From: Histidinibacterium aquaticum
GTDB taxonomy: Bacteria; Pseudomonadota; Alphaproteobacteria; Rhodobacterales; Rhodobacteraceae
Assembly (NCBI RefSeq): GCF_008710275.1
Contig: NZ_VYQE01000001.1
Location: 868,001-932,000, forward strand
Direction: 5' to 3'
DNA: 64,000 bases
The notes under the pieces are model-generated. The model had not been told where the DNA came from. It saw only the letters and a program-made list of their open reading frames with translations, and searched no databases. Made by a program: the position numbers and the translations under genes. This document shows, piece after piece, positions 11,371 through 49,591 of this stretch (the first letter of the stretch is position 1; every line of letters begins with the position of its first letter).

Positions 11371-11442
11371 TGTCCAAGCTTGGACACCCCGGCAAGCCTT
11401 TGATCCGCATATATTTCTATGGTTAACGGCTGAGCTGTTAAC
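11371..11442 (+). repeat. Composite palindromic element, copy 1
   Basis: The core TGTCCAAGCTTGGACA (11371-11386) is the centre of a 24-bp perfect palindrome that starts at 11367. Exactly 34 bp follow, AT-rich towards the end, then GGTTAACGGC-TGA-GCTGTTAAC (11421-11442). The right GTTAAC arm carries the stop codon of the convergent GFA gene. The element sits between the convergent gabD and GFA genes. The same 16 + 34 + 22 bp layout recurs on the minus strand at 49520-49591. It may act as a bidirectional terminator or a protein-binding site, or be a member of an intergenic repeat family. Confidence 0.75.
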
Positions 11443-11935
11443 TATTGCCGCCCAGCGCCACGGGGTGCGGGTGATCGAAGATGGTCGCCTCCTCCGGCAC
11501 GCCGTCGTTGGTCGTCGCGTGCCGGATGTATGTCGGGACACCCGAGGGAAGCACGGTGCCCGCCAGGGCGGTCTGCAGGAAGATGTGCTTGGCGTTTTCG
11601 CCGTCCCACTTGATCCAGTCAGGATCGTCGAAGGTCCCGCCGAAGATGCCCAGCAGACCCGGGAAACGCTCGAAGGTGTAGACGAGCTTGGTCCCGCAGG
11701 TCTCGCAGAAGTGGGCGAGGATCATCTTGCCGCTGCCCTCGGACCGGTGCTCGTAGAGCCGCGGCGTTCCGGCGGTGAAGGTGAAGGCCTCTTCCTCGAA
11801 GATCGGCTCCATGAAATAGGGCGCGCCGGTCGCGCGCTGGCAGAAGCGGCAGTGGCAGAAGGTGACGCGCACCGGCGGAGCGGTGACCTCGTATCGGAGC
11901 GCGCCGCAGAGGCAGCCGCCGGGCTGGGGGGTCAT
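11438..11935 (-). CDS. GFA family protein (CENP-V/GFA zinc-binding fold)
   Basis: This 165-aa protein has the zinc-binding cysteines of the glutathione-dependent formaldehyde-activating family: GGCLCGALRY at the N-terminus, FCHCRFCQR (about 26-34) and FCETCGTKL (about 77-85). Most family members have no proven reaction. The ATG at 11935 is preferred over an upstream in-frame ATG because GGAGGAGAGA lies just before it. It is convergent with gabD; its stop codon lies inside the palindromic element copy 1. Confidence 0.88.
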   Translation of the reverse strand: MTPQPGGCLCGALRYEVTAPPVRVTFCHCRFCQRATGAPYFMEPIFEEEAFTFTAGTPRLYEHRSEGSGKMILAHFCETCGTKLVYTFERFPGLLGIFGGTFDDPDWIKWDGENAKHIFLQTALAGTVLPSGVPTYIRHATTNDGVPEEATIFDHPHPVALGGNS

Positions 11936-12044
11936 GGGTCTCTCCTCCGGTTGCCGGAGTTGAGGGTAGCAATTCAATGACGCTGGGTCACCCTATTCCG
12001 TTTTCCCGCGTGACGGATGCCCGGGCCGCGCCTATCGTCGGAGG

Positions 12045-12443
12045 ATGGCCGAGCGCATCCAGCCTTTTCTCATGTTCCAGGGCGGCCGCGCCGGAGAGGC
12101 GATGGAGTTCTATACCTCGCTCTTCGACGAGGACGCCGTGCTGGTGAAACAGACCTTCGGGCCGGAGGGACCGGGCCCCGAGGGGACCGTCATGCTCGGC
12201 TCGATCCGCATCGCCGGGCAGACCGTGCTGCTCAGCGACAGCCCGATCGAGCACGGCTTCGACTTCACGCCATCCAGCTCGCTCTTCGTCACCTGCACCG
12301 ACGCTCCCGAGCTCGACCGGCTCGCCGCGGCCCTCGAGGACGGCGGCGTATTCCTGATGGAGCCGGGCGACCACGGCTTCAGCAGGCGGTTCGCCTGGGT
12401 TCAGGACCGGTTCGGCGTGTCCTGGCAACTCAACCTGGAATAA
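12045..12443 (+). CDS. VOC family protein (PhnB/YjdN-like)
   Basis: This 132-aa protein has the glyoxalase/bleomycin-resistance fold of the PhnB-like (3-dmu-9_3-mt) branch: an N-terminal QPFLMFQGGRAGEAMEFYTS, the central GFDFTPSSSLFV and a C-terminal DRFGVSWQLN. Family proteins bind a metal or small molecule, but this branch has no single known reaction. It is a single gene between the divergent GFA gene and the K+ uptake pair. The function is not predictable from context. Confidence 0.85.
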   Translation: MAERIQPFLMFQGGRAGEAMEFYTSLFDEDAVLVKQTFGPEGPGPEGTVMLGSIRIAGQTVLLSDSPIEHGFDFTPSSSLFVTCTDAPELDRLAAALEDGGVFLMEPGDHGFSRRFAWVQDRFGVSWQLNLE

Positions 12444-12521
12444 CGCCGGGCCGCCGGCGCCCTGCCCTTGCATGCGCCCCGGAATGTCCCAGATTGGCGC
12501 TCTGTTTTCGGGAGAGCCGTC

Positions 12522-13184
12522 ATGGCGCGAAAGAACCGGAGTATCGCGGTACTGGGTCTCGGCAATTTCGGGGCGATGATCGCCACCGAGCTGGCCCGCT
12601 TCGGCAACGATGTCGTGGGCATCGACATCGACCGCAAGATCGTCTCGGACCACGCGGAGAAACTCAGCCAGGCGCTGATCCTCGACGTCCGGGACGAGGC
12701 CGCGCTGCGCGAGGCCGGGGTCGGAGACTGCGAGGTGGCCGTCGTTGCGATGGCCTCGGATATCGAGGCCTCGATCCTCTCGGTGATGAACCTGCGGCTG
12801 CTTGGCGTGAAGCAGATCTGGGCCAAGGCGGTCAGCCGCACGCACCACCGGATCCTGTCGAAACTGGGCGTCGACCGGGTGGTGCACCCCGAGGAGGAGA
12901 TCGGCCGGTCGCTGGCCCAGATGATCCACAACCCGCTGATCCGCGACCTCGCCTCGCTCGGCAACGGCAACTACGTGGTCAACTTCATCGTGCCCGAGTC
13001 GCTCGCCGGGCAGCGCCTCGACGAGCTCGACCTGCCCGCCAAGCACGACGTCAGGGCCATCGGCGTGATGCGCGGATCGGACTGGCTGGGAGGCGAGACC
13101 TGCGCCACGCCGCTCGATGCCGACGACAAGCTGATCCTGCTCGGCACGCGCCCCAAGCTGCGCACCTTCGCCGAAGGTCTCTGA
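12522..13184 (+). CDS. ktrA: TrkA/KtrA family potassium uptake regulatory subunit
   Basis: This 220-aa RCK protein is the cytoplasmic gating subunit of a K+ transporter. An N-terminal Rossmann nucleotide-binding domain (VLGLGNFGAMIATELARFG, then GIDID; about 9-40) is followed by a TrkA_C domain from about residue 135 (LAGQRLDELDLP). It has one RCK unit, so it is of KtrA type rather than the duplicated TrkA of E. coli. The ATG at 12522 follows CGGGAGAG. The partner channel gene starts 1 bp after its stop, which strongly supports co-translation. Confidence 0.9.
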   Translation: MARKNRSIAVLGLGNFGAMIATELARFGNDVVGIDIDRKIVSDHAEKLSQALILDVRDEAALREAGVGDCEVAVVAMASDIEASILSVMNLRLLGVKQIWAKAVSRTHHRILSKLGVDRVVHPEEEIGRSLAQMIHNPLIRDLASLGNGNYVVNFIVPESLAGQRLDELDLPAKHDVRAIGVMRGSDWLGGETCATPLDADDKLILLGTRPKLRTFAEGL

Positions 13185-13185
13185 C

Positions 13186-14520
13186 ATGCGGGTGAGCTTC
13201 CGGGGGCGGGTTCTCTGGCTCCCGCCGCCCGCCCTCCTGGCGCTGCTCTACTTCGTCCTGATCCTGGCGGGGACGGCGCTGCTGATGCTGCCCGCCGCGC
13301 AGGCGCAGCCGGTCGGGCTGGGTGACGCGCTCTTCATGTCAGCCTCCGCAGTGACGGTGACCGGGCTCGTGGTCGTCGACCCGGGCACCTCGTTCACTCT
13401 CTTCGGCCAGGCGGTGCTGATGGGGCTGATCCAGCTCGGCGGGCTGGGCCTCATGGTCTTCGCGGCGCTGCTCCTGCTATCCCTGGGCATCGGCATCGGC
13501 CTGCCGCAGCGAGTGGTCCTGAGCGAGGAGCTGGGACAGGGCTCGATGCGGACGCTGAGGCGACTGGCCAAGCTGATCGTCACCGTGGCGGTCGTGGCCG
13601 AGCTTCTGGGCGCGTCGATCCTCGCCGTGGCCTTCGTACCGGTCTACGGCTGGGGCGAAGGCCTTTGGCAGGCGCTGTTTCACGCGGTCTCGGCTTTCAA
13701 CAACGCGGGCTTCAGCCTGTTTCCCGACAGCCTGATGAGCTGGGCCGGCCGCCCCCTCGTCTGCCTGACCATCGCGGCGCTCTTCATCGCGGGCGGGCTC
13801 GGCTTCGTGGTGCTCAACGACCTCTGGCAGAAGCGCCGGTGGCGGACGCTCTCGCTGCATTCGAAGCTCATGCTCGCGGGAACGGCGGCGCTGCTGCTTC
13901 TCTCCTGGGGGCTGGTGGCGGCGCTGGAGTGGCGCAACCCGGGGACGCTGGGCGCGATCGACGGGACGGGCGCGCGGCTGCTCGCGGCCTTCTTCGAGGG
14001 GGCGACGCCACGGACGGCGGGCTTCAACAGCCTCGACACCGCGGCGATGGAGGATGCGACGACGGTGCTGGTCATGGGGCTGATGTTCGTGGGCGGCGGG
14101 CCGACCTCGACCGCGGGGGGCATCAAGGTCACCACGGCGATCGTGCTGGTGCTGGCGACCTACGCCTTCTTCCGGCGGCGCGAGTCGATGCATGCCTTCG
14201 GGCGGTCGCTGGGGATCGAGGAAGTGCTGAAGGTCATGGCCCTGACGACGATCAGCGTGGCGACGGTCTTTGTCGGGCTGTTCGTGCTGGCGGCGGTGCA
14301 CGAGGGGCCGCTTTTCGACCTGTTCTTCGAGGTCGTCTCGGCCTTCGGCACCGTGGGGCTGAGCCGCGGGGCGACGGGGGATCTCGATCTCTTCGGGCAG
14401 ATCGTGATCGGGGGGATCATGTTCCTGGGACGGGTGGGACCGCTGACACTGGGGTTCTTCCTCGCGACCCGCAGCCACCCCCGGGTCGGCTACCCGAGGG
14501 GCGAGGTCTACCTGGGCTGA
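13186..14520 (+). CDS. ktrB: TrkH/KtrB family potassium channel subunit
   Basis: This 444-aa inner-membrane protein has the four pore repeats of the Trk/Ktr superfamily. The four selectivity-filter loops are visible as TVTGLVV (about 60), NNAGFSLF (about 170), RTAGFNSL (about 280) and GTVGLSRG (about 390). Ktr-type length and the adjacent KtrA-like gene suggest Na+-dependent K+ uptake gated by nucleotide binding to the RCK ring. It ends 3 bp before the stop codon of the convergent gene ending at 14524. No obvious terminator separates them. Confidence 0.92.
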   Translation: MRVSFRGRVLWLPPPALLALLYFVLILAGTALLMLPAAQAQPVGLGDALFMSASAVTVTGLVVVDPGTSFTLFGQAVLMGLIQLGGLGLMVFAALLLLSLGIGIGLPQRVVLSEELGQGSMRTLRRLAKLIVTVAVVAELLGASILAVAFVPVYGWGEGLWQALFHAVSAFNNAGFSLFPDSLMSWAGRPLVCLTIAALFIAGGLGFVVLNDLWQKRRWRTLSLHSKLMLAGTAALLLLSWGLVAALEWRNPGTLGAIDGTGARLLAAFFEGATPRTAGFNSLDTAAMEDATTVLVMGLMFVGGGPTSTAGGIKVTTAIVLVLATYAFFRRRESMHAFGRSLGIEEVLKVMALTTISVATVFVGLFVLAAVHEGPLFDLFFEVVSAFGTVGLSRGATGDLDLFGQIVIGGIMFLGRVGPLTLGFFLATRSHPRVGYPRGEVYLG

Positions 14521-14523
14521 GGC

Positions 14524-15072
14524 TCAGGCGATCTCCGCCGTGTCGGGGGCCTCTTCAGGCTCGACCGCGGGACCGAAGGCGAGTTCCTCGGCTTCCTCGA
14601 AGAGCCGGCCGTAGGTCTCGGCGGCGGTACCGGCGCGGGCCATCAGCGCGTCGCGCAGCATGGCGGTGCCGGGGGCGCGCAGACCGGTCGGCAGCACATC
14701 GTGCGAACGGGCCTCATCGGCGAGCAGCAGCGCGAGACGCTGGCGTTCGTCCAGGACCTCGGAGGCGGGCATCGTGTCGGCTTCGCCGGGGCGCAGCGCG
14801 TAGGCGGCGATCATCCGGTCGATGGCGCGTTGCACGCCTTCGGGCGCCTTGGCGGCGCGGGACAGGGCGCGGGCCAGGGTGAGCTGGGCATCGACGCGCG
14901 AGGCGCTGCCGCGGCAGGCGATGATGAGCATGATCTGCTGGACGATCCAGCGCAGGAGCATCAGTCCGGCGGTCATCAGCGAGACGGCCATGAGGACACC
15001 CGGTGCGGCCGGACTCACCTCCACTGCCCAGATGGAAAGAACGACTGTGATGGCGAGGTATTCCGGATGCAT
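14524..15072 (-). CDS. Membrane-anchored hypothetical protein
   Basis: This 182-aa protein has two N-terminal membrane segments (about residues 5-20 and 25-52) and a soluble, Ala/Glu-rich helical C-terminus ending EEAPDTAEIA. I recognise no family. It is convergent with the KtrB gene and divergent from the sigma factor gene, so it is probably a single-gene unit. A role in K+ transport cannot be claimed from position alone because it lies on the opposite strand. Confidence 0.7.
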   Translation of the reverse strand: MHPEYLAITVVLSIWAVEVSPAAPGVLMAVSLMTAGLMLLRWIVQQIMLIIACRGSASRVDAQLTLARALSRAAKAPEGVQRAIDRMIAAYALRPGEADTMPASEVLDERQRLALLLADEARSHDVLPTGLRAPGTAMLRDALMARAGTAAETYGRLFEEAEELAFGPAVEPEEAPDTAEIA

Positions 15073-15197
15073 GTACGTCTCCCTGTCAGGCGTCGATGCA
15101 ACCTTCGGGATACAATCGGGCAGTTTCCGGGCGGCAGTGGGTCGGTATCGTGCCTTGAAGGCCCCGATCAGGAAATTCTTTACCTAACGTGCGCCGG

Positions 15198-15217
15198 ATT
15201 GACGCCGCGGCGTCAAT
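15198..15217. promoter_or_regulatory. 20-bp perfect palindrome upstream of the sigma factor gene
   Basis: ATTGACGCCGCGGCGTCAAT is its own reverse complement. It lies in the 251-bp divergent gap between the membrane protein gene (start 15072) and the ECF sigma factor gene (start 15324). Its size and position suit an operator for a dimeric regulator. The rest of the gap shows no gene. Confidence 0.5.
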
Positions 15218-15323
15218 ATCGCCGCGATCTTCGCGCCCGGAATGAGTGCTCGTCCCGGCGCGGGAATCGCTTTTTTCCGCGAGCGGCCAAGGATTGACCG
15301 GCGGGTGGCGTCGAAGGACCGTG

Positions 15324-15866
15324 ATGCGCATGGACACGAGCGACGAGGACCTGGCGAGGGCGGCCGCCGACGGCGACGGCCAGGCCTTCGGGCTGCTCGT
15401 CGAACGGGTCTACGACCGGCTCTTCGCGCTCGCCTTCCGGCTGACCGGGAGCCGGGCGGAGGCGGAGGACCTGACGCAGGACATCTGTGCCGCGCTCCCG
15501 TCAAAGCTCTCGGGCTTTCGCGGTCAGGCGCGGGTCACCACCTGGCTCTACCGCGTCGCGGTGAACGCGGCACACGACCGGCGGCGGCGGCAGGCGAGCT
15601 ACGCCCGCGCCACCGAGGGCTGGGGCGACTGGGAGATCGGGCGTACGGAGGCCGGGGCGGAAGAGCGGGAGCGGCGGGACTGGCTGACGCGGGCCATGCG
15701 GTCGCTGCCCGACGACCTGCGCGACACCGTGGCGCTGGTGCTCGACGACATGAGCCACGCGGAGGCGGGCGAGATTCTCGGGGTGTCGGAGGGTACCATC
15801 AGCTGGCGGATGTCCGAAGCCCGGAAACGGCTGCGCGCGCTCAAGCAGAAGGAGGAGGCGGAATGA
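15324..15866 (+). CDS. ECF-type RNA polymerase sigma factor
   Basis: This 180-aa sigma-70 family protein has only regions 2 and 4. Region 2 covers about residues 10-75 (GLLVERVYDRLFALAFRLTG, then AEDLTQD, then TTWLYRVAVNAAHD), and region 4 covers about 120-172 (LPDDLRDTVALVL, then EAGEILGVSEGTISWRMSEA). The start at 15324 has AAGGA 5 nt upstream; the ATG at 15330 is an alternative. Its stop overlaps the ATG of the VWA gene (ATGA), so the two are translationally coupled and the VWA protein is the likely regulator of this sigma factor (inference). Confidence 0.9.
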   Translation: MRMDTSDEDLARAAADGDGQAFGLLVERVYDRLFALAFRLTGSRAEAEDLTQDICAALPSKLSGFRGQARVTTWLYRVAVNAAHDRRRRQASYARATEGWGDWEIGRTEAGAEERERRDWLTRAMRSLPDDLRDTVALVLDDMSHAEAGEILGVSEGTISWRMSEARKRLRALKQKEEAE

Positions 15867-17830
15867 TCCGCCCGGACGAGATCGACGAGCTGAAGGCGGC
15901 GATGGAGGCAGAGACCCCCTCGCCCGATCCCGCGCGCCGTGCCGAGGACCTCGCCCGGGCGCGGGAGGCCTTCTGGGCGCTCCACAGGGAGGAGCCCCAA
16001 GGATCGGGCCGTCCGCGTCGTCACATCCTCGCAACGGCCCTCGCGGGCCTTCGGAGAGGAGTGACGACCATGACGACGACCCTGACCTCGCGCGGCGGCC
16101 TCACGGCGACCACGGCCATCGTGGCCGGCTGCCTGCTCGTTCTGACACCCGGCGGGCGAGAGCTGATCCGGCCGGGCCTGCCGGTCCTTACCGAGGACGC
16201 TGCGGAGCCCGTGGCGGAAATCGAGGAGGCCGACACCGCCGTGGCGACCGAGAGCGCCCCTGCCCCGGAGGCCGCCGGCCTTTCGCAGGCGGAGGCGGAG
16301 GCGCCGCCCGCTCCGCCCCCGATGCCCGCACCGCAGTCGCTCATGCGGACGGCCCCCGCGGAAGAGGCGCCCCCCGCCATGCAGGGATTCGGATCGCCGC
16401 TGGGCGACGACGCCTTCTCCGCGCCGATGCCGGAGCTGGACACCGAGACCTTCGCCGAGGCCAAGTCCTCTGGCGTGAAGGTGACGGTGGAGGAGCCCGT
16501 CTCGACCTTCTCGATCGACGTGGACACCGCCTCGTGGTCGGTCATCCGATCCTCGCTCACATCCGGCCGGTTGCCGCCGCCGGAGGCCGTGCGGATCGAG
16601 GAGATGGTGAACTACTTCGACTACGGCTACCCCGGGCCCGGGGAGGCGGAGGCGCCCTTTGCCGTCGACCTCGCAGCGATGGAGACGCCCTGGAACGACG
16701 GGACCCAGCTCGTGCGGATCGGGATCCAGGGACGGATGCCTGCCGTCGCTGACCGGCCGCCACTCAACCTCGTCTTTCTCGTCGATACCTCGGGCTCGAT
16801 GAACGATCCCGACAAGCTGCCCCTTCTGGTGCAGTCCCTGCGGCTGATGCTGTCGGAGCTGCGTCCGGAGGACGAGGTGGCCGTCGTCACCTACGCCGGA
16901 TCGGCCGGAACCGTGCTGGAGCCGACCCCGGCGCGCGAGCGCGAGACCATCCTCCAGGCGCTGGAGACACTGCAGGCGGGCGGGTCGACCAACGGAGCGG
17001 GCGGCCTCTCCGCCGCCTACGACCTGGCGGAGGAGATGAGCGCGGAGGGCGAGGTCTCCCGCGTGATCCTCGCCACCGACGGGGATTTCAACGTCGGGCT
17101 CTCCGATCCCTCGGCGCTCGAGGACTTCATCGCGAGGGAGCGGGAGAGCGGCACCTACCTCTCGGTGCTGGGTTTCGGACGCGGGAACCTCGATGACGCG
17201 ACGATGCAGGCGCTGGCGCAGACCGGGAACGGGACGGCGGCCTACATCGACACGCTGAACGAGGCGCAGAAGGTACTCGTGGACCAGCTCTCTGGCGCGC
17301 TCTTTCCCATCGCGGATGACGTGAAGATCAAGGTGGAGTGGAACCCGGCGGAGGTCGCCGAGTACCGGCTCATCGGCTACGAGACCCGCGCCCTGCGGCG
17401 CGAGGATTTCAACAACGACGCGGTGGACGCGGGCGAACTGGGGGCCGGTCACTCGGTCACCGCGCTCTACGAGGTGACGCCCGTGGGATCGCCCGCCCGG
17501 CTCACCGATCCGCTGCGCTACGGAGCGCCGGAGGCCGCGAGCGACGGCGGGGAGCTGGGGTTCCTGCGGCTGCGCTACAAGGCGCCGGGGGAGGACGGGT
17601 CGCAGCTGATCGAGACGCCGGTGAGGGCCGGTATGGAAGCCGACGAGGACGCCCGCTTCGCGGCAGCGGTGGCCGGGTTCGGCGAATTGCTTCGCGGCTC
17701 GGACTACCTGGGCGACTGGGGCTACGAAGAGGCCATCGAGTTGGCGAGTGGGGCGCGGGGCGAAGATGCCTTCGGCTATCGCACCGAGGCCGTCCGGCTC
17801 ATGCGCCTGGCGCAGTCTCTCTCTGAATGA
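15863..17830 (+). CDS. Membrane-anchored VWA domain protein (YfbK-like), possible anti-sigma fusion
   Basis: This 655-aa protein has a cytoplasmic helical N-terminus (1-75), one membrane segment (about 79-96), an acidic Pro/Ala/Glu-rich linker (100-200), a YfbK-type N-terminal domain (FSIDVDTASWSVIRSSL, about 216-232), a von Willebrand A domain with an intact MIDAS DTSGSM (308-313), and a DUF3520-like C-terminus. The topology (short cytoplasmic segment, one membrane span, extracytoplasmic sensor) is that of membrane anti-sigma factors. It is coupled to the sigma gene by an ATGA overlap. Its last 32 bp overlap the convergent WYL regulator gene. Confidence 0.88.
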   Translation: MIRPDEIDELKAAMEAETPSPDPARRAEDLARAREAFWALHREEPQGSGRPRRHILATALAGLRRGVTTMTTTLTSRGGLTATTAIVAGCLLVLTPGGRELIRPGLPVLTEDAAEPVAEIEEADTAVATESAPAPEAAGLSQAEAEAPPAPPPMPAPQSLMRTAPAEEAPPAMQGFGSPLGDDAFSAPMPELDTETFAEAKSSGVKVTVEEPVSTFSIDVDTASWSVIRSSLTSGRLPPPEAVRIEEMVNYFDYGYPGPGEAEAPFAVDLAAMETPWNDGTQLVRIGIQGRMPAVADRPPLNLVFLVDTSGSMNDPDKLPLLVQSLRLMLSELRPEDEVAVVTYAGSAGTVLEPTPARERETILQALETLQAGGSTNGAGGLSAAYDLAEEMSAEGEVSRVILATDGDFNVGLSDPSALEDFIARERESGTYLSVLGFGRGNLDDATMQALAQTGNGTAAYIDTLNEAQKVLVDQLSGALFPIADDVKIKVEWNPAEVAEYRLIGYETRALRREDFNNDAVDAGELGAGHSVTALYEVTPVGSPARLTDPLRYGAPEAASDGGELGFLRLRYKAPGEDGSQLIETPVRAGMEADEDARFAAAVAGFGELLRGSDYLGDWGYEEAIELASGARGEDAFGYRTEAVRLMRLAQSLSE

Positions 17831-18524: not shown

Positions 18525-18525
18525 G

Positions 18526-18891
18526 TCAGGCGGAGCCGGGCTGGAACAGGCCGATGGAGTTGCCGTCGAGATCGAGGGCGTACTGGAACCGGCCGACCGG
18601 GATCGGGATGATCGGTCCCTCGACCTTGCCGCCGGCCTCGGCGACCCGATCGGCGGCGGCCTCCACGGTATCGGGCACGGCGAAGTGGATCGTCGGCCCC
18701 TGCCCCGGCGTGCCGGGATAGAGATGTCCGCCGGTGGTGTCGTTGGCGCCGTCGAAGACGGCCATCGGGTTCGGGCCGCTTTCGTCGATGGTCATGGTCC
18801 AGCCGAAGACGGTGGAATAGAAGTCGCAGGCGGCCTTGAGGTCCGTGACCGGTATCTCGGTCCAGACGACGATGGGTCGTGACACGGGCAT
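18526..18891 (-). CDS. VOC family protein
   Basis: This 121-aa protein of the glyoxalase/dioxygenase fold has the features IPVTDLKAACDFYSTVFGW at the N-terminus and FQYALDLDGNSIGLFQP at the C-terminus. Such proteins bind a metal and a small ligand; the substrate is not known. It is the first gene of an operon with the WYL regulator, a pairing that suggests the VOC protein handles or senses the regulator's ligand. The promoter region upstream carries a three-half-site operator-like motif. Confidence 0.88.
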   Translation of the reverse strand: MPVSRPIVVWTEIPVTDLKAACDFYSTVFGWTMTIDESGPNPMAVFDGANDTTGGHLYPGTPGQGPTIHFAVPDTVEAAADRVAEAGGKVEGPIIPIPVGRFQYALDLDGNSIGLFQPGSA

Positions 18892-41850: not shown

Positions 41851-41862
41851 CTTTCGTCCTCC

Positions 41863-42136: not shown

Positions 42137-42165
42137 CGTATAGAAGCCGAGGCGCAGGCTGACAA
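42137..42165 (-). promoter_or_regulatory. Sigma-70 promoter of rpmI-rplT
   Basis: Read on the minus strand, TTGTCA (-35, 42165-42160), 17 bp, then TATACG (-10, 42142-42137). Spacing is ideal, and it is well placed 74 bp before the rpmI start. Confidence 0.65.
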
Positions 42166-42180
42166 GCCCCCGGAGCGCGG

Positions 42181-42405: not shown

Positions 42406-42500
42406 ACCGTGTCCCTCACACCTGTGTCCCTTGGGGAGTTTACCCAAGGTCGGCTACAGGGCGAGAGACTTCTTTAGGGACAGGCTCCGGCTGTTGCGCG

Positions 42501-43946
42501 TCAGCCCGGCTCCTGCCGGAAGATCAGACGCTCCTCGCAGGGTGCCACGCGCAGGATGTTGGTCGAGCCCGGAGTGTTGAAGGGCACGCCGGCGACGACG
42601 ATGATGTTGTCCTCCGGCTTCGCGCCGAGGATCGTCCGCGCGGCCCGGACGGCATAGACCACCGCCGTCTTGAAGCGGTCGAGGTCGCCGGTCATCACCG
42701 GGTTCACGCCCCAGGTCAGGCAGAGCGCCCGGGCCGTCAGGCGGATCGTGGTCATCGCGATGATCGGCACCTGCGGCCGCTCCCGCGCGGTGAGCAGCGC
42801 CGTCGTCCCGCTTTCGGAGAAGCAGCAGATCGCGAGCACGTCGGTCGCCTCCGCGATCTCGCGCGCGGCGGAGACGACACCGTCCGGCACGCTCTCGCGG
42901 TGGGCGGTGCGGCTCGCCGCCATGATCTCCAGGTAGGTCGGGTCGCTCTCCACCTCGGCGGCGACGTTGTCCATCGTCTGGACCGCCTCCACAGGGAACT
43001 GTCCCGCCGCGCTCTCGGCCGAGAGCATGATGGCATCGGTGCCCTCGTAGATCGCGGCGGCCACGTCCGAGACCTCTGCCCGGGTGGGCATCGGGCTTTC
43101 GATCATGCTCTCCAGCATCTGCGTCGCGACGATCACCGGCTTGGCCGCGGCGCGGCACTTGCGCACCAGCCGCTTCTGGATCGGCGGGACGTTCTGGACG
43201 GGCAGCTCGACGCCAAGGTCGCCCCGGGCGACCATGATGCCGTCGGAGGCCTCGAGGATCTCCTCGAAGCTGCGCACGGCGGCGGGTTTCTCGATCTTCG
43301 ACAGGATGCGCGCCCGGCCCTGGACGATCGCGCGGGCCTCTTCGACGTCCGCGGGGCGCTGCACGAAAGAGAGCGCGACCCAGTCGACGCCGAGCTCCAG
43401 CACGAAGTGCAGGTCCTTGCGGTCCTTCTCCGACAGCGCGGCGAGCGGCAGCACCACGTCGGGGACGTTCACGCCCTTGCGGTTGGAGATCGTACCGCCG
43501 ACGACCACCTCGCAGTCGGCGAAGTCGCGGCCGCAGTCCTTGACCTTGAGGCGGATCTTGCCGTCGTTGACCAGCAGCGCCGCGCCCGGCTCGAGCGCGT
43601 CGAAGATTTCCTTGTGTGGCAGCTTCACCCGCGTCTCGTCGCCTTCGGCGTCGTCGAGGTCGAGCCGGAAGCTCTGCCCGACTTCGAGTTCCGCCGAGCC
43701 GTCCTGGAAGGTGCCGACGCGCAGCTTCGGGCCCTGCAGGTCCGCGAGGATGCCGATCGGGCTGTCCACGTCCTTCTCGACCTGTCGGATGATGTCGTGA
43801 CGCGCACGGATCTCCGAATGGTCGCCGTGGCTCATGTTCAGGCGGAAGACATCGGCCCCCGCAGCATGGAGCGCGCGGATCGTCTCGTAGTCGCTGGACG
43901 AGGGTCCAAGCGTCGCGACGATCTTCACGTTGCGATGGCGTTTCAT
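42501..43946 (-). CDS. pyk: Pyruvate kinase
   Basis: This 481-aa enzyme catalyses the phosphoenolpyruvate + ADP to pyruvate + ATP step. The motifs are RNVKIVATLGPSS at the N-terminus, FRLNMSHGDHSEIR (about 36-49), the metal and substrate residues in SKIEKPAAVRSFEEI (about 217-231) and MVARGDLGVELP (about 240-251), and TQMLESMIESPMPTRAEVSD. The length is normal. The ATG at 43946 is fixed by MKRHRNVKIVATLGP. A LacI-type operator lies 28 bp upstream at 43974-43985, so control by a central-carbon regulator is likely. Confidence 0.95.
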   Translation of the reverse strand: MKRHRNVKIVATLGPSSSDYETIRALHAAGADVFRLNMSHGDHSEIRARHDIIRQVEKDVDSPIGILADLQGPKLRVGTFQDGSAELEVGQSFRLDLDDAEGDETRVKLPHKEIFDALEPGAALLVNDGKIRLKVKDCGRDFADCEVVVGGTISNRKGVNVPDVVLPLAALSEKDRKDLHFVLELGVDWVALSFVQRPADVEEARAIVQGRARILSKIEKPAAVRSFEEILEASDGIMVARGDLGVELPVQNVPPIQKRLVRKCRAAAKPVIVATQMLESMIESPMPTRAEVSDVAAAIYEGTDAIMLSAESAAGQFPVEAVQTMDNVAAEVESDPTYLEIMAASRTAHRESVPDGVVSAAREIAEATDVLAICCFSESGTTALLTARERPQVPIIAMTTIRLTARALCLTWGVNPVMTGDLDRFKTAVVYAVRAARTILGAKPEDNIIVVAGVPFNTPGSTNILRVAPCEERLIFRQEPG

Positions 43947-43973
43947 GACTGCCTCCGTGGCCGTTCTTGGGGC

Positions 43974-43985
43974 GTTAACGCTAAC
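43974..43985 (-). promoter_or_regulatory. LacI-family-type operator upstream of pyk
   Basis: GTTAACGCTAAC is a 12-bp near-palindrome with a central CG, fitting GTTARCGYTAAC. It lies 28-39 bp upstream of the pyk start. This is the style of site reported for the LacI-type regulator CceR of Rhodobacter sphaeroides (as I recall), which controls central carbon genes including pyruvate kinase. Confidence 0.5.
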
Positions 43986-44057
43986 GCGCGCCTTATCGCC
44001 GGATTCCCTTTCGCCGACAACTAGCCTAAGGCCGGGGAGAACGACAACGACATTGCC

Positions 44058-44801
44058 ATGACACAAACCGCCTACGAGATCGTCAACGAAACCGCGAAAA
44101 GCCGGTGGCTCGTGACCTGCGACCACGCGAGCAACCGCGTCCCGCCCGAGATCTGCGGCGGCGATCTCGGGCTGCCCGCGGCCGATATGCAACGCCACAT
44201 CGCCTACGACGTGGGCGCCGCCGGCGTCTCGCGTCACCTTTCCGCCCTGCTCGAGTGCCCCGCGGTGCTGTCAAACTTCTCGCGCCTGGTCATCGACCCG
44301 AACCGCGGCGCCGACGATCCGACCTTGGTGATGAAGCTCTATGACGGGACCATCATCCCCGGGAACCGCCGCGTCGACGCCGCCGAGGTCGACCGCCGCA
44401 AGGGACTGCTCTACACGCCCTACCACGATGCCGTCGCCCGCTGCGCCGCCCGGCAGGAGTCGACTCTCTATCTCGCCATCCACTCGTTCACGCCTCGGCT
44501 GCGCGGTCGCCGTCCCCGCCCCTGGCACCTCGGCATCCTCCACGCCTGGGACGAGCGGCTCTCGCGTCCGCTCATCGACCGGCTCTCGGAGGAGCGGGAT
44601 CTCATCGTTGGCGAGAACGAACCCTACCCTGGCCACCTGCCGGGCGACGCAGTGGACCGCCACGCGCTTCACCACGGTCGGCCCAACGCGCTGATCGAGA
44701 TCCGCCATGACCTGATCGCCGACGAAGCGGGCCAACGCGCCTGGGCCGAACGGCTGGCGCCGCTGCTGCGAGAGGCCGCGGCCCGGATGGACGCCGCCTG
44801 A
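44058..44801 (+). CDS. N-formylglutamate amidohydrolase family protein
   Basis: This 247-aa protein of the FGase family may hydrolyse N-formyl-glutamate or related amides. The motifs are LVTCDHASNRVP (about 18-29), HIAYDVGAAGVSRHL (about 47-61), RLVIDPNRG and the later IHSFTPRLRG. No histidine-utilisation genes adjoin it, so the substrate is uncertain. It is divergent from pyk across a 111-bp gap that holds the pyk operator. The DUF1244 gene follows after 36 bp and may be co-transcribed. Confidence 0.85.
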   Translation: MTQTAYEIVNETAKSRWLVTCDHASNRVPPEICGGDLGLPAADMQRHIAYDVGAAGVSRHLSALLECPAVLSNFSRLVIDPNRGADDPTLVMKLYDGTIIPGNRRVDAAEVDRRKGLLYTPYHDAVARCAARQESTLYLAIHSFTPRLRGRRPRPWHLGILHAWDERLSRPLIDRLSEERDLIVGENEPYPGHLPGDAVDRHALHHGRPNALIEIRHDLIADEAGQRAWAERLAPLLREAAARMDAA

Positions 44802-44837
44802 GGCACTCCCCATATTGCGTGGGAAAGGGAGACAGCC

Positions 44838-45095
44838 ATGACCCAGATCGACGAGTCCACCCGCATCGAGCTCGAGGCCGCCGCCTTTCGCAGGCTTCGC
44901 CAGCACCTGATGGAAGAGCGGACCGACGTGCAGAACATCGACCTGATGGAGCTCGCCGGGTTCTGCCGCAACTGCCTCAGCCGCTGGTACGCCGAGGCCG
45001 CCGAGGAGCGCGGCATAGAGCTTTCGAAAGAGGAGGCGCGGGAGGACTTCTACGGCATGCCATACGAGCGCTGGAAGGCGGAATACCAGCGCTGA
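44838..45095 (+). CDS. DUF1244 protein
   Basis: This 85-aa small soluble protein matches the DUF1244 family: FRRLRQHLMEERTDVQNIDL followed by LAGFCRNCLSRWY with a CxxC pair (about 43-46) and the C-terminal YGMPYERWKAEYQ. Structures of relatives are helical; the function is unknown. The gene follows the amidohydrolase gene by 36 bp and has GGGAGA upstream of its ATG. Confidence 0.9.
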   Translation: MTQIDESTRIELEAAAFRRLRQHLMEERTDVQNIDLMELAGFCRNCLSRWYAEAAEERGIELSKEEAREDFYGMPYERWKAEYQR

Positions 45096-45259
45096 GACCG
45101 TCGCGCCGCAGTTTCGACACAATCCGGGCACATTCCGGCTATGAGTCGCCATCCTGCCTGTCGTTCCGGTTCAATTTTCCTCGGATTGACCGCTTTCAGC
45201 GACTAATCCGAGTCCCGGATACGGATCGGTAACTGTATCGAAACGAGATACGCAAAGCT

Positions 45260-45289
45260 TTGACACGTTCTATACCGCCCGACTATTTC
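45260..45289 (+). promoter_or_regulatory. Possible sigma-70 promoter of the 92-aa gene
   Basis: TTGACA (45260-45265), 18 bp, then TATTTC (45284-45289). The -35 is perfect and the -10 is poor. It is 55 bp before the ATG at 45345. An inverted pair CTCGGATT/AATCCGAG (45180-45212) lies upstream in the same 249-bp gap; I see no gene in the gap. Confidence 0.4.
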
Positions 45290-45344
45290 CGCTGCCAGAC
45301 GAGACGAGGAATGGCCGGGTTGGCCGCGACAGGAAGGAAATGAC

Positions 45345-45623
45345 ATGACGGATACGGCGCTGCGCCCGACACTCTTTGGAGCCATTTCTTCTTTCGTGGG
45401 CCGTGTCTTCGAGTCCGAGCCGCCGATGCTGGTCCAGGGCTTCGACCCGGACCGTCAGACGCTCACTCTCACAGTCGACAATGCCCAGGACGGCGACGAA
45501 GTGATCTTCCGCGACTCCGGTCGCGGCTGCGACGTGGTCATGGGCGGCAAGACCCTCGCCCGCATCGTCGGCGTCCGCCCCGACGAACTCGACGCCGGAA
45601 GCATCCGCCTCATCGCAGGCTGA
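45345..45623 (+). CDS. Small hypothetical protein, beta-rich
   Basis: This 92-aa acidic protein has no signal peptide. The region QTLTLTVDNAQDGDEVIFRD, then MGGKTLARIVGV, looks like beta strands with acidic turns, somewhat like a single calcium-binding haemolysin-type unit, but the GGxGxD signature is absent. The family is not recognised. AGGAAGGAAA precedes the ATG. It is a single gene preceded by its own promoter-like sequence. Confidence 0.6.
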   Translation: MTDTALRPTLFGAISSFVGRVFESEPPMLVQGFDPDRQTLTLTVDNAQDGDEVIFRDSGRGCDVVMGGKTLARIVGVRPDELDAGSIRLIAG

Positions 45624-45824
45624 CCCGAGGGCGGCTCACGGCCCCCTTCCCACCGATGTGATCACGTCTGTCTTGATCGTTTCGGCCCCCCTGTCCATTT
45701 CATTCGACATGAGGCCGGCCCGGCTGTTTCAGCTGGCTCCGGTCGATCATCGGCCTCCGGGAATCCGGCGTCGCGCATGCGTCGGTCCAGCACGGGGGCG
45801 CACTGTCTGACCCGCGGTGCCCGT

Positions 45825-45853
45825 GGGCCGCAACCGGTCTCCGGCTGCGGCCC
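45825..45853 (-). terminator. Stem-loop after the D-amino-acid aminotransferase gene
   Basis: GGGCCGCA pairs with TGCGGCCC, with an inner CCGG/CCGG extension and a TCT loop. It starts 10 bp after the stop at 45864. There is no T-tract, so it may be a 3' stabiliser rather than a full terminator. The remaining gap to 45623 shows no gene. Confidence 0.5.
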
Positions 45854-45863
45854 CTGCCGCCTC

Positions 45864-46721
45864 TCAGATCGCGACCTTCCGGCTTTCTTCCAGGTAGATT
45901 TCCCGCAGCCGCTTCGCGATGGGCCCCGGCGTGCCGTCGCCGAGCGGCGTGCCGTCGATCTCCACCACCGGCATGACGAAGGTCGAGGCCGAGGTCACGA
46001 AGGCCTCGTCGGCCTCCTTCGCCTCCTCGGGGGTGAAGCCGCGCTCTTCCACCTGCATCTGAGCCTCCTGCGCCATGCGCAGCACGGCGGCCCGGGTGAT
46101 CCCGTGGAGGATGTCGGTCGACAACTCCCGCGTGATGATCTTGCCGTCCTTCACGATGTAGGCGTTGTTCGACGTGCCCTCGGTGATCTGCCCCTCCTCG
46201 ACCATCCAGGCGTCGTCGACACCGGCCTTCTTGGCCATCATCTTGCCCATGGAGGCATAGAGCAGCTGGACCGTCTTGATGTCGCGGCGCGCCCACCGGG
46301 CGTCGGGGATGGTCACGACCTTGATGCCCGTCTTCGCGGCCGGACTCTCGGCCAGGCCGGGCTTCGACTGGGTGAAGAGGACGATGGTCGGCTCGGTGTC
46401 TTCCGGCGGATACGCGAAGTCCCGGTCGGCGGGCGCGCCCCGTGTCACCTGCAGGTAGACCAGCCCGTCCTCGATCTCGTTGAGCCGCACCAGCTCGCGG
46501 TGGATCTCCAGCAGCTCGTCCTCCTCGACGGGGCTGCGCATCTCCAGCTCGCCCAGGCTGCGCTGCAGCCGCCGCGCGTGGCCCGCGAAATCGATCAGCT
46601 TGCCGCCCAGGACGCTCGTCACCTCGTAGACGCCATCGGCGAAAAGGAACCCGCGATCGAAGACCGAGACGCTCGCCTCCTGCTCGGGCAGGTACTGGCC
46701 ATTGACGTAGACGGTGCGCAT
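45864..46721 (-). CDS. dat: D-amino-acid aminotransferase (PLP fold type IV)
   Basis: This 285-aa protein of the branched-chain/D-amino-acid transaminase family starts MRTVYVNGQYLPEQEASVSV and has the FDRGFLFADGVYEV motif (about 21-34). The PLP lysine is Lys149 in RRDIKTVQLL, and EGTSNNAYIV is the cofactor loop. DgcA and DgcN, which handle D-glutamate, lie a few kb away, consistent with D-amino-acid metabolism. The ATG at 46721 has AGGAGGC upstream; a longer frame to 46754 is unlikely. Confidence 0.88.
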   Translation of the reverse strand: MRTVYVNGQYLPEQEASVSVFDRGFLFADGVYEVTSVLGGKLIDFAGHARRLQRSLGELEMRSPVEEDELLEIHRELVRLNEIEDGLVYLQVTRGAPADRDFAYPPEDTEPTIVLFTQSKPGLAESPAAKTGIKVVTIPDARWARRDIKTVQLLYASMGKMMAKKAGVDDAWMVEEGQITEGTSNNAYIVKDGKIITRELSTDILHGITRAAVLRMAQEAQMQVEERGFTPEEAKEADEAFVTSASTFVMPVVEIDGTPLGDGTPGPIAKRLREIYLEESRKVAI

Positions 46722-46789
46722 GAGGGGGCCTCCTTTAGGGTCACCCGCCTGCATGGCAAATTATCCGCCCGGGTCAAGGGCCGGGCCCG

Positions 46790-47827
46790 TCAGACCTCGC
46801 CGCTGGCCGAGAGCATGACAGCGATCGGCCGGGTCGCCCGGATCTCGGCCAGCACGATCACCAGGCTCGCCGTCATCGGCACCGCCAGCACCGCCCCGGC
46901 GACGCCCCAGAGCGAACTCCAGACCGCCAGCGCCAGCAACACGGCGAAGGGACTGAGGTTGAAGGCCCGCCCCATCATCCGCGGTTCGAGATAGCCGCCG
47001 ACGAAGATCTGCACCGCCGAGAGCGCGAGGATCACCAGTCCCGACATCCAGAGCGTCCCGAACTGCGCCACGCTGAGCAGTACCGGGAACACCACGCCGA
47101 GCAGCGAGCCGATGTAGGGAATGTAGTTGAGGAAGGCGATGAGCACCGCCCAGAACAGCGCGAACTCGATCCCGAGAAGCAGCATCAGCAGATAGGAGAT
47201 CGCGCCCAGGATCGCGTTGACGATGGTCTTGACCAGCAGGTACCGCCCGATCCGGTCGTTGACCCGCGCCAGGATGCCCAGCGTCCGTTCGCCCTCGGCC
47301 GGACCACCCGCCGCGATCACCACCTTCCGTGCCAGCGCCCCGCGCTCGGCGAGGAAGAAGGCCGCGTAGAGCACGATCAGGAAGAGCGTCGTCCCGAGCC
47401 CCTGAAGCGAGAACAGCGCCGGGGCGGCGAGCGACCGGATGTCGATCTGGTCGAAGGTCGCCTGCCGGACGTTCTCCCAGGTGGGTTCGTCCTCGATCCC
47501 GGCGAGGCTCGCTACCCGGGTGATCAGCGCCTCGATGTTGGTCTCGTAGCGCGGCAGGACCGAGACCACCTGCGCGAGGTTGTTGATGACCAGCACGAAG
47601 AGCCCGACCACCCCCAGCGCGAAGGCACCGAGCGCCAGCGTCCGGCGCACCCAGTCCGGCAGGCGCCCGAGTACCGGCACCTGTGCCATGGCCGCCGCGG
47701 CGGTCGAAAGCACGTAGACCGCGATGAGCGCCGCGATGACCGGTACGACCACGGGTCGCCCGACCCAGAGCAGCCAGCCCAGCATCAGCGTCAGCGCGAC
47801 CCCGTATGTGATGTTGCGCAGCTGCAC
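46790..47827 (-). CDS. AI-2E family transporter (TqsA/PerM-like)
   Basis: This 345-aa inner-membrane protein has about eight membrane segments: two near the N-terminus, a soluble middle (about 85-140), then a cluster from 150 to 330. FLNYIPYIGSLLGVVFPVLL (about 240-259) and EPRMMGRAFNLSPFAVLLALAVW, cut here as shorter pieces (EPRMMGRAFNLSP, about 280-292), are family landmarks. Members export small molecules or Na+/H+; naming AI-2 as the substrate would be unsupported. It is upstream of the aminotransferase on the same strand by 68 bp. Confidence 0.9.
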   Translation of the reverse strand: MQLRNITYGVALTLMLGWLLWVGRPVVVPVIAALIAVYVLSTAAAAMAQVPVLGRLPDWVRRTLALGAFALGVVGLFVLVINNLAQVVSVLPRYETNIEALITRVASLAGIEDEPTWENVRQATFDQIDIRSLAAPALFSLQGLGTTLFLIVLYAAFFLAERGALARKVVIAAGGPAEGERTLGILARVNDRIGRYLLVKTIVNAILGAISYLLMLLLGIEFALFWAVLIAFLNYIPYIGSLLGVVFPVLLSVAQFGTLWMSGLVILALSAVQIFVGGYLEPRMMGRAFNLSPFAVLLALAVWSSLWGVAGAVLAVPMTASLVIVLAEIRATRPIAVMLSASGEV

Positions 47828-47926
47828 GCCCCGTCCCCGCAGGTTCCCCTGCCCTTTTCCGCAGTGCGGCGGGCGAAATCAATCCCATCGGCTGCGACTT
47901 CCGGGACCGGCTGTAACGGGGAGGGG

Positions 47927-48463
47927 TCACTCGGGGTGGATGTCCCTCGGCGTGCATCCGGAATCGAGCACGACGGCGGCCCAGTTCACGTCGAGCGAAT
48001 ACCCCTGCTCCGCGAGCCAGGCGTCCTGCAGCCGGTACGCCGGCAATTCCTGTGCCCCCCGGCAATACCAGTGATGCGGCGCCTGCCTGTGATGGGTGAG
48101 CTCGTGCAGCAGGACCGAGACATCGACCGCATTGCGCGGGTCCCAGGGGAGCACCAGCAGAATCTCGGCCTCCTCCGGGTCATAGAGACCGCGAAGCCTG
48201 CCGCGCTGGAAGCTCGCCGAGCCCCCCTGCCGCGCCGCCGCCTGCCACTCGCTGACGAGTCTGACACGCGGTGAAGTCTCGCGGCGCGGCCACTCCGCCC
48301 GGGCATCGAGCCAGACCTCGAGCGACCCGATGAGCGTGGTCATGTTGTCGGCCTGCTGCCACGCGGCGACCGGCTCGGGCGGTGCGGTCTCTGCGCCCGG
48401 GAGCACCGGGCAAAAGCTTGCCAGGGCCGTGGCGAATGCCACGGCGATACGAGAGCGAAACAT
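47927..48463 (-). CDS. Secreted HExxH protein (metallopeptidase-like, DUF6647-like)
   Basis: This 178-aa exported protein has a signal peptide up to about residue 24 (ALASFCPVLPGAETA). A zinc-site-like HELTH lies at 120-124, followed by EL at 139 in GAQELPAYRLQDAW, which could supply the third ligand as in gluzincins. Cys134 and Cys170 may pair. The pattern recalls DUF6647 (from memory). A catalytic role is inferred from the motif only. It is divergent from the LysR gene. Confidence 0.75.
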   Translation of the reverse strand: MFRSRIAVAFATALASFCPVLPGAETAPPEPVAAWQQADNMTTLIGSLEVWLDARAEWPRRETSPRVRLVSEWQAAARQGGSASFQRGRLRGLYDPEEAEILLVLPWDPRNAVDVSVLLHELTHHRQAPHHWYCRGAQELPAYRLQDAWLAEQGYSLDVNWAAVVLDSGCTPRDIHPE

Positions 48464-48575
48464 CGAAACCTCCGATGCGTGATTTTGAGATTTGGTGTCT
48501 CGATGGTACGCTGCTTACCCAACGGCACCGAACGATCGCTTTTCAGGCTCGCATGAGCTGAGTTCAGGCAGAGAG

Positions 48576-49487
48576 ATGGGACGCAAGCTTCCCCCCTTCG
48601 CCGCCGTCCGGGCCTTCGAGGCCACCGCGCGGCACATGTCGGTCAAGGCTGCAGCGGAGGAGCTGTGCCTGACGCCCTCGGCCGTGAGTCACCAGATCAA
48701 GGCCCTGGAGGGCTTTCTCGACACGCAGCTTTTCGAGAGGTCTGGCAACCGGATCGCGCTCACCCTGACGGGCGCGGGCTATGCCGGGAAGCTGACCCAC
48801 CTCCTGGACGCCTTCACCGAAGAGACCGAGGCCGTCCGTGGCGCGTCGCTCCCCCTGCGCGTTCTCTCGACACCGGGCTTCGCCGCGCGCTGGCTCGTGC
48901 CCCGCTTGCCGAAGCTGCCTTTCGGCCGCGACATCCGGCTGCGGGTCTCGAACGGGGCGCCCTCCCTCGACTTCGCGACGAACGACGCGGACGTCGTGAT
49001 CCAGTGGTCGGACCGCCCGACACCCGGCCTCTTGGTCGAGCCCCTGATGGCCTCGGCAAGGTATCCGGTCATCTCGCCGGACCTGCGGGAACGCGAGAAC
49101 GTGCGCCGCCCGGAGGACCTGCTGCGGCTCACGCTCTTCTACGACGAGACGGACGATGCCTGGGCCGAATGGTTCGCCGCGGCGGGCCTTGCAGGAGCGA
49201 AGCTGCCGCCGGGCCCGACCTATCCCAACTGCGAGCTGGCGACGACCATGGTGGAGCAGCACCAGGGCGTGTCGCTGGCCTACGACTCCGTGGTTCGCGG
49301 CACGATCGCCTCGGGCCGGTTGGAGCGCCTCTTCGACGTGACGACCCTGCCCATGTCGATCTATGCCGTCGCCTGCCCCGAAGCCCGTGCGGACGATGCG
49401 CGGATCAGCGAGTTCCGCCGCTGGCTGCGCGCGGAAGCCGAGGCAGAGGGGGTCGTGCCGCAGCCCCTGTACCAGGCCGCGGAGTGA
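48576..49487 (+). CDS. LysR family transcriptional regulator (GcvA-like)
   Basis: This 303-aa regulator has an N-terminal winged HTH (LPPFAAVRAFEATARH, then KAAAEELCLTPSAVSHQIK; about 5-45) and a periplasmic-binding-like effector domain from about 90 to 295. The GcvA-like subclass is suggested by the YDSVVRGTIASGRL region. It is convergent with dgcA across the palindromic element copy 2, so a link to D-glutamate genes is possible but unproved: LysR genes usually control a divergent neighbour, here the HExxH protein gene. Confidence 0.9.
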   Translation: MGRKLPPFAAVRAFEATARHMSVKAAAEELCLTPSAVSHQIKALEGFLDTQLFERSGNRIALTLTGAGYAGKLTHLLDAFTEETEAVRGASLPLRVLSTPGFAARWLVPRLPKLPFGRDIRLRVSNGAPSLDFATNDADVVIQWSDRPTPGLLVEPLMASARYPVISPDLRERENVRRPEDLLRLTLFYDETDDAWAEWFAAAGLAGAKLPPGPTYPNCELATTMVEQHQGVSLAYDSVVRGTIASGRLERLFDVTTLPMSIYAVACPEARADDARISEFRRWLRAEAEAEGVVPQPLYQAAE

Positions 49488-49519
49488 CTTCGCGAGGAGC
49501 CTACGGGGGCCGACGAATG

Positions 49520-49591
49520 GTTAACGGGATTCCCGTTAACCTAATTTATGTATATATTACAGCCATCTATATGCCTGTCCAAACTTGGACA
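49520..49591 (-). repeat. Composite palindromic element, copy 2
   Basis: Read on the minus strand: TGTCCAAGTTTGGACA (49591-49576), exactly 34 bp of AT-rich spacer, then GGTTAACGGG-AAT-CCCGTTAAC (49541-49520). It has the same order, spacing and 72-bp total as copy 1 at 11371-11442. The second stem differs from copy 1 but stays fully paired (10-bp arms). It lies between the convergent LysR and dgcA genes; the dgcA stop is 2 bp beyond it. Confidence 0.75.

What the first reader, a model, noticed from the sequence alone, without database searches (positions are those of the whole stretch)
11371..49591. Two copies of a 72-bp two-palindrome element with exactly equal spacing, both between convergent genes
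Copy 1 (11371-11442, plus) and copy 2 (49591-49520, minus) share a 16-bp palindrome TGTCCAAGYTTGGACA, then exactly 34 bp, then a GGTTAACGG...GTTAAC dyad, 72 bp in all. The spacers are dissimilar except for being AT-rich. The arms of the second stem differ between copies (GGC/GCT against GGG/CCC) but stay paired, and the flanks of the first palindrome also differ yet extend the stem (GGGG/CCCC in copy 1, C/G in copy 2). Conserved geometry with changing but complementary bases points to selection on structure. Both sit at gene 3' ends facing each other, and one provides a stop codon. I know of no named element with this layout.
Basis: seen in the sequence. Interest (0 to 1): 0.75.

Follow-up and report, generated by a model that had tools for sequence, protein, structure and literature searches.

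The report
IHF-site palindrome repeats at gene ends
The two look-alike DNA elements belong to a family with at least 66 copies in this bacterium's genome, mostly at the ends of genes, in which a palindrome whose letters differ from species to species stands beside what looks like a binding site for the DNA-bending protein IHF; it resembles, without being related in sequence, the IHF-binding repeats at gene ends known in E. coli.

Summary
Both copies are real. Their palindrome is one of at least 66 copies in the genome; the congener Histidinibacterium lentulum has at least 35 with a symmetrically changed palindrome and the same tail. The 'dissimilar AT-rich spacer' holds, at a fixed place, a bottom-strand match to the IHF consensus WATCAANNNNTTR plus an A/T tract: at most 2 mismatches in 45 of 66 and 25 of 35 copies, against 31 of 24480 background windows. 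Copy 2 of the window matches poorly (4 mismatches). In several genera a distal half-copy of the palindrome lies 4 or 5 helical turns away. Other genera keep the layout with other palindromes, in G008 mostly one unrelated in sequence; arms change but stay largely complementary. Nine of 35 H. lentulum copies share gene junction and orientation with a copy here. Copies lie mainly at gene 3' ends without preference for transcript strand, so a DNA element is likelier than an RNA one. No Y1/RAYT transposase, target duplication, or phage or plasmid carrier was found for the forms tested. Most likely an analogue of enterobacterial RIB/BIME-1 repeats; partner protein and function are not shown.

The parts
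11371..11386 (+). copy 1, palindrome TGTCCAAGCTTGGACA
11393..11405 (-). copy 1, IHF-like core GATCAAAGGCTTG (1 mismatch to WATCAANNNNTTR), with an A/T tract at 11409-11416
11421..11442 (+). copy 1, GGTTAAC...GTTAAC dyad; the bases at 11438-11440 are the stop codon of the minus-strand GFA gene
49576..49591 (-). copy 2, palindrome TGTCCAAGTTTGGACA, 1 bp behind the TAG of the MR_MLE gene
49557..49569 (+). copy 2, place of the IHF site: TTACAGCCATCTA, 4 mismatches (degenerate; the spacer is AT-rich)
49520..49541 (-). copy 2, GGTTAACGGGAATCCCGTTAAC dyad; on the + strand it scores as terminator-like, followed by TAATTTATGT
9874..11352 (+). aldehyde dehydrogenase gene ending before copy 1 (start approximate)
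11438..11935 (-). GFA-family gene ending inside copy 1 (start approximate)
49593..50543 (-). MR_MLE (enolase-like) gene ending at copy 2 (start approximate)
48576..49487 (+). LysR-family gene facing copy 2 (start approximate)

Best explanation
It is a dispersed, chromosomal double-stranded-DNA element of about 70 bp: a palindrome of about 14-18 bp, then (bottom strand) an IHF-like site with its upstream A/T tract, then a distal module that is a half-copy of the palindrome and/or a GTTAAC-type dyad. Proposed mechanism: IHF binds and sharply bends the middle (inferred from the site), which folds the distal module back onto the palindrome; where a distal half-site is present it lies about a whole number of helical turns from the palindrome (measured), so one second protein could hold both on one face of the DNA (inferred). 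The result would be a compact nucleoprotein knot at gene ends, a boundary for transcription or supercoiling, as proposed for enterobacterial BIME repeats. The second protein is unknown; its specificity must differ between species, since the palindrome differs. Shown: copies, geometry, IHF-like site, distal half-site in several genera, gene-end placement, absence of strand preference, complementary arm changes, shared junctions. Inferred: IHF binding, partner protein, knot, boundary role.
For: 66 oriented copies. IHF-like core on the bottom strand at +22..+34: at most 1 mismatch in 23 of 66 (window genome) and 15 of 35 (H. lentulum) copies, against 4 and 2 hits summed over the 182 other offsets; top strand there 0 in both; A/T 100% and 97% at -11/-10 of the site in the window genome. 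Both sets were chosen by palindrome alone. In Pseudoruegeria 48 of 49 match fully, but 6 of the 9 defined letters were forced by the search pattern. Distal half-site: H. lentulum +51 (11 of 35), Frigidibacter +50/51 (10 of 13), Pseudoruegeria +61/62 (29 of 49), Seohaeicola +62 (5 of 10), that is 42-43 or 53-54 bp between matching letters. Codirectional contexts, three genomes pooled: 41 (+,+) against 37 (-,-), P 0.73, so no transcript-strand preference. Convergent against divergent 27:5, 13:1, 17:3. Same layout with an unrelated palindrome in G008, there also upstream of serS as in three other species. Rhodobacterales possess both IHF subunits (PMC5683647, passages). A BIME impedes supercoil diffusion in E. 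coli (PMC6907758, passage).
Against: No binding data. The IHF genes of this genome were not searched. Copy 2 of the window has a degenerate IHF core (4 mismatches), and 21 of 66 copies have 3 or more. In the window species the distal half-copy is essentially missing (one TTGGACA at +51 in 66 copies); GTTAAC is there in 27 of 66, so 39 have neither exact form. Spotty distribution of the forms searched argues against an essential role. No partner protein found.
Confidence: 0.55

Rival explanations
1. A non-autonomous mobile repeat (REP- or MITE-like) that spreads with IHF help and a so far unidentified enzyme, and survives mostly behind stop codons because insertion there does little harm.
For: Spotty presence: Pseudoruegeria has 62 hits of the CCATGG form (two are second readings of the same palindrome), 30 relatives have 0 of that form; its copies are nearly uniform and end in a terminal half-site, GTCCCCA...TGGGGAC; placement like REPs, most convergent ones lying <20 bp from ORF 3' ends in two species (PMC3733652, one section read); tails of nine shared junctions are no more alike than other pairs; 11 of 38 shared-gene pairs are discordant in side or strand.
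Against: No Y1/RAYT match in G000, G003, G008, G156, G263, G343, G378, G413; no target duplication in 46 Pseudoruegeria copies; three close inverted pairs there flank ordinary host genes; not in phage, plasmid or viral collections for the forms searched; 9 of 35 H. lentulum junctions shared with identical orientation against about 0.6 expected.
Confidence: 0.35
2. A 3'-UTR RNA element or (bidirectional) terminator: two hairpins that end or stabilise transcripts.
For: Both strands of both copies fold better than shuffles (z -2.9 to -5.9; expected of palindromes); the dyad of copy 2 is terminator-like on the + strand; position behind stop codons.
Against: No strand preference relative to codirectional genes (41:37); no terminator-like site at copy 1; GTTAAC presence is unrelated to the strand of the right-hand gene (P 0.42 and 0.72); at least six copies carry a separate GC-rich stem behind the tail (by eye: L032, L033, L037, L044, L045, L060); the A/T tract and IHF-like core fit DNA; no match at gathering level in Rfam in 6 loci (one sub-threshold cspA match overlaps the far end of the L107 copy).
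Confidence: 0.1
3. Operators of a transcription factor regulon.
For: Species-specific palindrome with a strongly conserved core; a few copies lie in divergent regions, e.g. serS/yajC.
Against: Divergent regions are the rarest context (5 of 64, 1 of 35); 36 of the 46 copies that follow a gene lie 1-12 bp behind its stop codon.
Confidence: 0.08

Closest known systems
RIB/RIP elements (BIME-1) of enterobacteria
   Same: Dispersed palindromic repeat with an IHF site at a fixed place, at 3' ends of transcription units (BIME-1 and IHF: PMC2817692, passages; Boccard and Prentki 1993 seen only as a reference title; the rest recalled)
   Different: No GTAG REP units, no RAYT, single palindrome plus distal half-site or GTTAAC-type dyad, palindrome differs between species
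CGTC REPs of alphaproteobacteria (Di Nocera 2013, PMC3733652; abstract, passages and one section seen)
   Same: Alphaproteobacterial, behind genes, no known transposase, CGTC/TGTC at one end
   Different: There CGTC is an unpaired tag before an 8-9 bp stem with, in most, a CCA tail; here it is part of the stem and is absent from the main G008 palindromes; an IHF-like site is added; only one pair of copies closer than 4 kb among 66
Correia elements (CREE/NEMIS) and other IHF-binding MITEs
   Same: Small repeat with inverted ends that can bind IHF (start of the abstract of PMC2649163 in a search listing)
   Different: Terminal half-sites are short, no target duplication found in Pseudoruegeria; no alignment of the sequences was made

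Membership tests
RIB/RIP (BIME-1) | IHF site at fixed position inside the repeat | tested here: met
   by consensus only: 23 of 66 and 15 of 35 with at most 1 mismatch at one offset; not in copy 2 of the window
RIB/RIP (BIME-1) | two inverted GTAG-type REPs | tested here: not met
   by inspection of the listed copies: one palindrome plus half-site or dyad, no GTAG tag in register
RIB/RIP (BIME-1) | location at 3' ends of transcription units | tested here: met
   59 of 64 copies with both neighbours called have at least one gene end facing them (own gene caller)
RIB/RIP (BIME-1) | binding of IHF protein | not testable with these tools
   needs a binding assay
GTAG REP/RAYT | Y1 transposase gene (PF01797) in the genome | tested here: not met
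   none in G000, G003, G008, G156, G263, G343, G378, G413; 4 of 17 genomes matched (G002, G004, G011 and the 3-hit carrier G084); control rings in E. coli
CGTC REP | unpaired CGTC tag, 8-9 bp stem, 4-5 nt loop, CCA tail | tested here: not met
   CGTC pairs with GACG within the palindrome; main G008 forms and G120 lack it (definition from passages of PMC3733652)
MITE | target-site duplication | tested here: not met
   46 Pseudoruegeria copies, lengths 2-9, best excess 1.5 copies
MITE | terminal inverted repeats | tested here: inconclusive
   half-site only, at the distal end in part of the copies
intrinsic terminator | GC stem plus T run | tested here: inconclusive
   copy 1 none, copy 2 one on the + strand
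attC/integron site | RYYYAAC...GTTRRRY boxes and integrase | not tested
   considered from memory only; GTTAAC does not fit GTTRRRY

The most novel reading that the evidence does not exclude
A gene-boundary system of Rhodobacterales in which an unknown palindrome-reading protein works with IHF at tens of chromosomal sites, and in which that protein's specificity has switched repeatedly, so that sites at orthologous gene junctions changed their palindromes in concert (AA/TT against AC/GT between two Histidinibacterium species; GTCC..GGAC against GTTGC..GCAAC upstream of serS) while geometry, IHF-like site and orientation stayed.
Probability: 0.3. Interest if true: 0.82.

Novelty: new variant of a known kind. 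Interest (0 to 1): 0.62.

Why it matters
IHF-binding palindromic repeats at gene ends have been known in enterobacteria since 1993 without, as far as I recall, an agreed function. A second, sequence-unrelated family with the same logic in another class would be an independent case: what is kept between the two is likely to be what matters. Species-specific palindromes at shared gene junctions give a natural experiment for finding the missing protein by co-occurrence and for telling inheritance with concerted change from re-insertion.

Tried and rejected
RAYT/Y1 partner: rejected. Autonomous partner next to copies: clustering genes within 1.5 kb of copies gave shared genes in 3-4 genomes but no family name was looked up for them; I saw no recurrent transposase by eye. 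Three inverted close pairs in Pseudoruegeria flank ordinary host genes (holA, lptE, leuS, argH, rpsD are my reading of the proteins, no family search). Target duplications: none. Phage, plasmid, viral carriage: none, tested with one 80-base Pseudoruegeria copy and one GTCC..GGAC pattern. Rfam: no match at gathering level; of two weak ones a cspA match (37.7 bits, gathering 78, E 1e-6) overlaps the far end of the L107 copy and probably reflects the neighbouring gene (inference). Strand of the hairpin from wobble pairs: top G.T 47, A.C 23 of 1575 cells, uneven between species, inconclusive. Inheritance test by tail similarity of 9 shared junctions: negative (0.386 against 0.416).

Results against: 11 of 38 shared-gene pairs are discordant in side or strand: two are cross-matches of a small paralogous gene (71%), three concern the L073 gene, which has the element at its other end in the window species, the rest are five genes in Frigidibacter, Pseudoruegeria or Ww612, two of them at 40-42% identity. 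A tail-matrix scan of the window at a high threshold found neither a further copy nor the two known ones. In the serS test (300 bp upstream read) 27 of 28 genomes showed no recognisable element, among them five that carry it elsewhere (G084, G263, G343, G378, G413), and in G008 yajC was not seen on the other side; a first version of that script read the wrong side for minus-strand matches and is discarded. The invariance of CAA..TTG in the 21 G008 copies is by selection, since the script and two of the search patterns required it; only the tail-found places count. Absence in other genomes means absence of the palindrome or tail forms searched. Even spacing: CV 0.74 against 0.96, P 0.01 in G000; P 0.09 in Pseudoruegeria scaffold 1, weak. 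DnaA boxes, CtrA sites and attC were considered from memory and dropped.

Dropped rows: one search counted 71 places, 66 were collected; 6 of 111 stretches outside Rhodobacterales were left out as chance hits; of 27 G008 tail hits only the 10 listed were read. Gene calls are from my own codon-usage script, so neighbours and starts are approximate.
Full report
WHAT IS THERE. The two elements are as described. The window is C1:868001-932000 of a 3.9-Mb genome. A congener, G003, is Histidinibacterium lentulum B17 by its contig lengths, so the window most likely comes from another Histidinibacterium (inference).

GENOME-WIDE FAMILY. TGTCCAAGNTTGGACA has 16 places and a reversed control of 0; TGTCCAANNTTGGACA has 20; up to two mismatches give 71, control 2; CGTCCAAATTTGGACG alone has 35, and 0 in four congeners. 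I collected 66 of the 71; letting each choose its orientation for best mutual agreement gives the consensus CGTCCAAATTTGGACg gcggGtcAAg.c.tTGAaat..at.gaaAAtc, followed in part of the copies by GTTAAC. GTTAAC marks mainly the TGTCC subtype, to which both window copies belong (18 of 22 against 9 of 44).

RELATIVES. H. lentulum has a symmetric variant, CGTCCACrygTGGACG: the window-species pattern with up to two mismatches gives 42 places there against 12 control, while G001, G002, G004 and G008 stay at control level. A tail matrix trained only on the window genome picks one strand for each of the 35 fetched copies (winning scores 9.0 or more, losing -3.2 or less). In 394 family genomes the pattern GTCC-N6-GGAC-N6-TCAAG-N3-TTGA (1 mismatch) hits 12, with 27, 18, 14, 14, 11, 3 and 3 hits in seven and single hits in five; the reversed control gives 3 hits in all. 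The named scan found 111 stretches, 105 of them Rhodobacterales: Pseudoruegeria sp. HB172150 49, a Pseudooceanicola MAG 14, Frigidibacter 13, Seohaeicola 10, MAG Ww612 10 and others. The genomes with several copies each have their own main palindrome: centres CCATGG, CAGCTA, TAGCTA, GAGGTT, CACRYGTG or CAAnnTTG.

IHF-LIKE SITE. The conserved tail, read on the bottom strand, fits WATCAANNNNTTR, a consensus in print (15 papers in a search listing). At +22..+34 at most one mismatch occurs in 23 of 66 and 15 of 35 copies; the 182 other offsets together give 4 and 2. At most two mismatches: 45 of 66 and 25 of 35, against 31 of 24480 background windows. An A/T pair stands 10-11 bp 5' of it in 97-100% (window genome) and 91-97% (H. 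lentulum). Copy 1 has 1 mismatch, copy 2 has 4, so copy 2 may be degenerate.

DISTAL MODULE. A half-copy of the palindrome recurs downstream, in H. lentulum and Frigidibacter 42-43 bp and in Pseudoruegeria and Seohaeicola 53-54 bp from the matching letters of the palindrome, close to 4 and 5 turns of 10.5 bp. In the window species GTTAAC stands there instead in 27 of 66 copies; 39 have neither exact form.

PALINDROME SWAP. Upstream of serS, 28 further genomes were read; one, G008, has there, 78 bp from the start codon (window species, H. lentulum and Seohaeicola: 88, 87, 74), an element with GGTTGCAAGGTTGCAACC; yajC, the other neighbour in the window species and Seohaeicola, was not seen in G008. 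A pattern for it finds 9 places in G008, control 0, and 0-3 in 26 other genomes; 8 of the 9 carry the element's tail, the ninth is another repeat. A palindrome-free tail pattern finds 27 in G008, 5 in H. lentulum and single hits in seven others; control 1. Of the 22 listed places the 10 of G008 show an inverted repeat at the right place, inner CAAGnTTG in 10 of 10 with differing outer arms; H. lentulum 2 perfect and 3 imperfect; G303, G120 and G221 have their own palindromes; G361 has none, G231 and G128 are ambiguous, one is the known L042 copy of the window species. This is the least biased evidence for complementary change.

CONTEXT. Window genome: 27 convergent, 18 (+,+), 14 (-,-), 5 divergent of 64 with both neighbours called; H. 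lentulum 13, 10, 11, 1 of 35; Pseudoruegeria 17, 13, 12, 3 of 49, 4 uncalled. The window itself has 13 convergent and 13 divergent adjacent pairs, and 5 and 13 among those at least 40 bp apart. Stop codon to palindrome is 1-12 bp in 36 of 46 and 0-12 in 26 of 33 copies that follow a gene (window genome, Pseudoruegeria). Codirectional copies of the three genomes show no strand preference (41:37, P 0.73).

SHARED JUNCTIONS. 9 of 35 H. lentulum copies lie beside the same gene, on the same side and strand, as a copy of the window species; about 0.6 would be expected with some 3600 junctions, an assumed number. Over all genomes held 27 of 38 shared-gene pairs agree in side and strand and 11 do not. 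Tails of the nine pairs are not more alike than other pairs, so inheritance with concerted change and re-insertion at preferred places both remain open.

WHAT IT WORKS LIKE AND WHAT IT IS. It works most like enterobacterial RIB/BIME-1 repeats (palindrome, IHF, gene ends) but is not a member: no GTAG REPs and no RAYT. It is not a CGTC REP, because the CGTC is paired. In the searches made (open-access papers, listings only, passages of four papers and of one in 71) I saw no description of this family; subscription papers were not searched.

Noticed in passing
L344 near 1500 (-) and L347 near 1812 (+), genome G008: Two copies of another repeat, GGCGTTTTGCAACGCTGCAA ... ACATAAAyCAAGCAA ... CACCACGCCCG, unlike the element described.
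   Followed up: no
L121, H. lentulum copy: CTATCCACAGGTTATCCACAGG, a DnaA-box-like pair (motif recalled), stands shortly behind the IHF-like site of this copy.
   Followed up: no
L107:1168-1494: Sub-threshold Rfam match to the cspA thermoregulator (37.7 bits, gathering 78); it overlaps the far end of the element copy in this locus.
   Followed up: no
L343 near 2559, genome G008: A second element, GCTCAAGGTTGAGC plus tail, about 1 kb from the first in the same locus.
   Followed up: partly
window 43974-43979 and 57361-57366: Two more GTTAAC sites outside the elements; 6 in the window against 0.93 expected.
   Followed up: no
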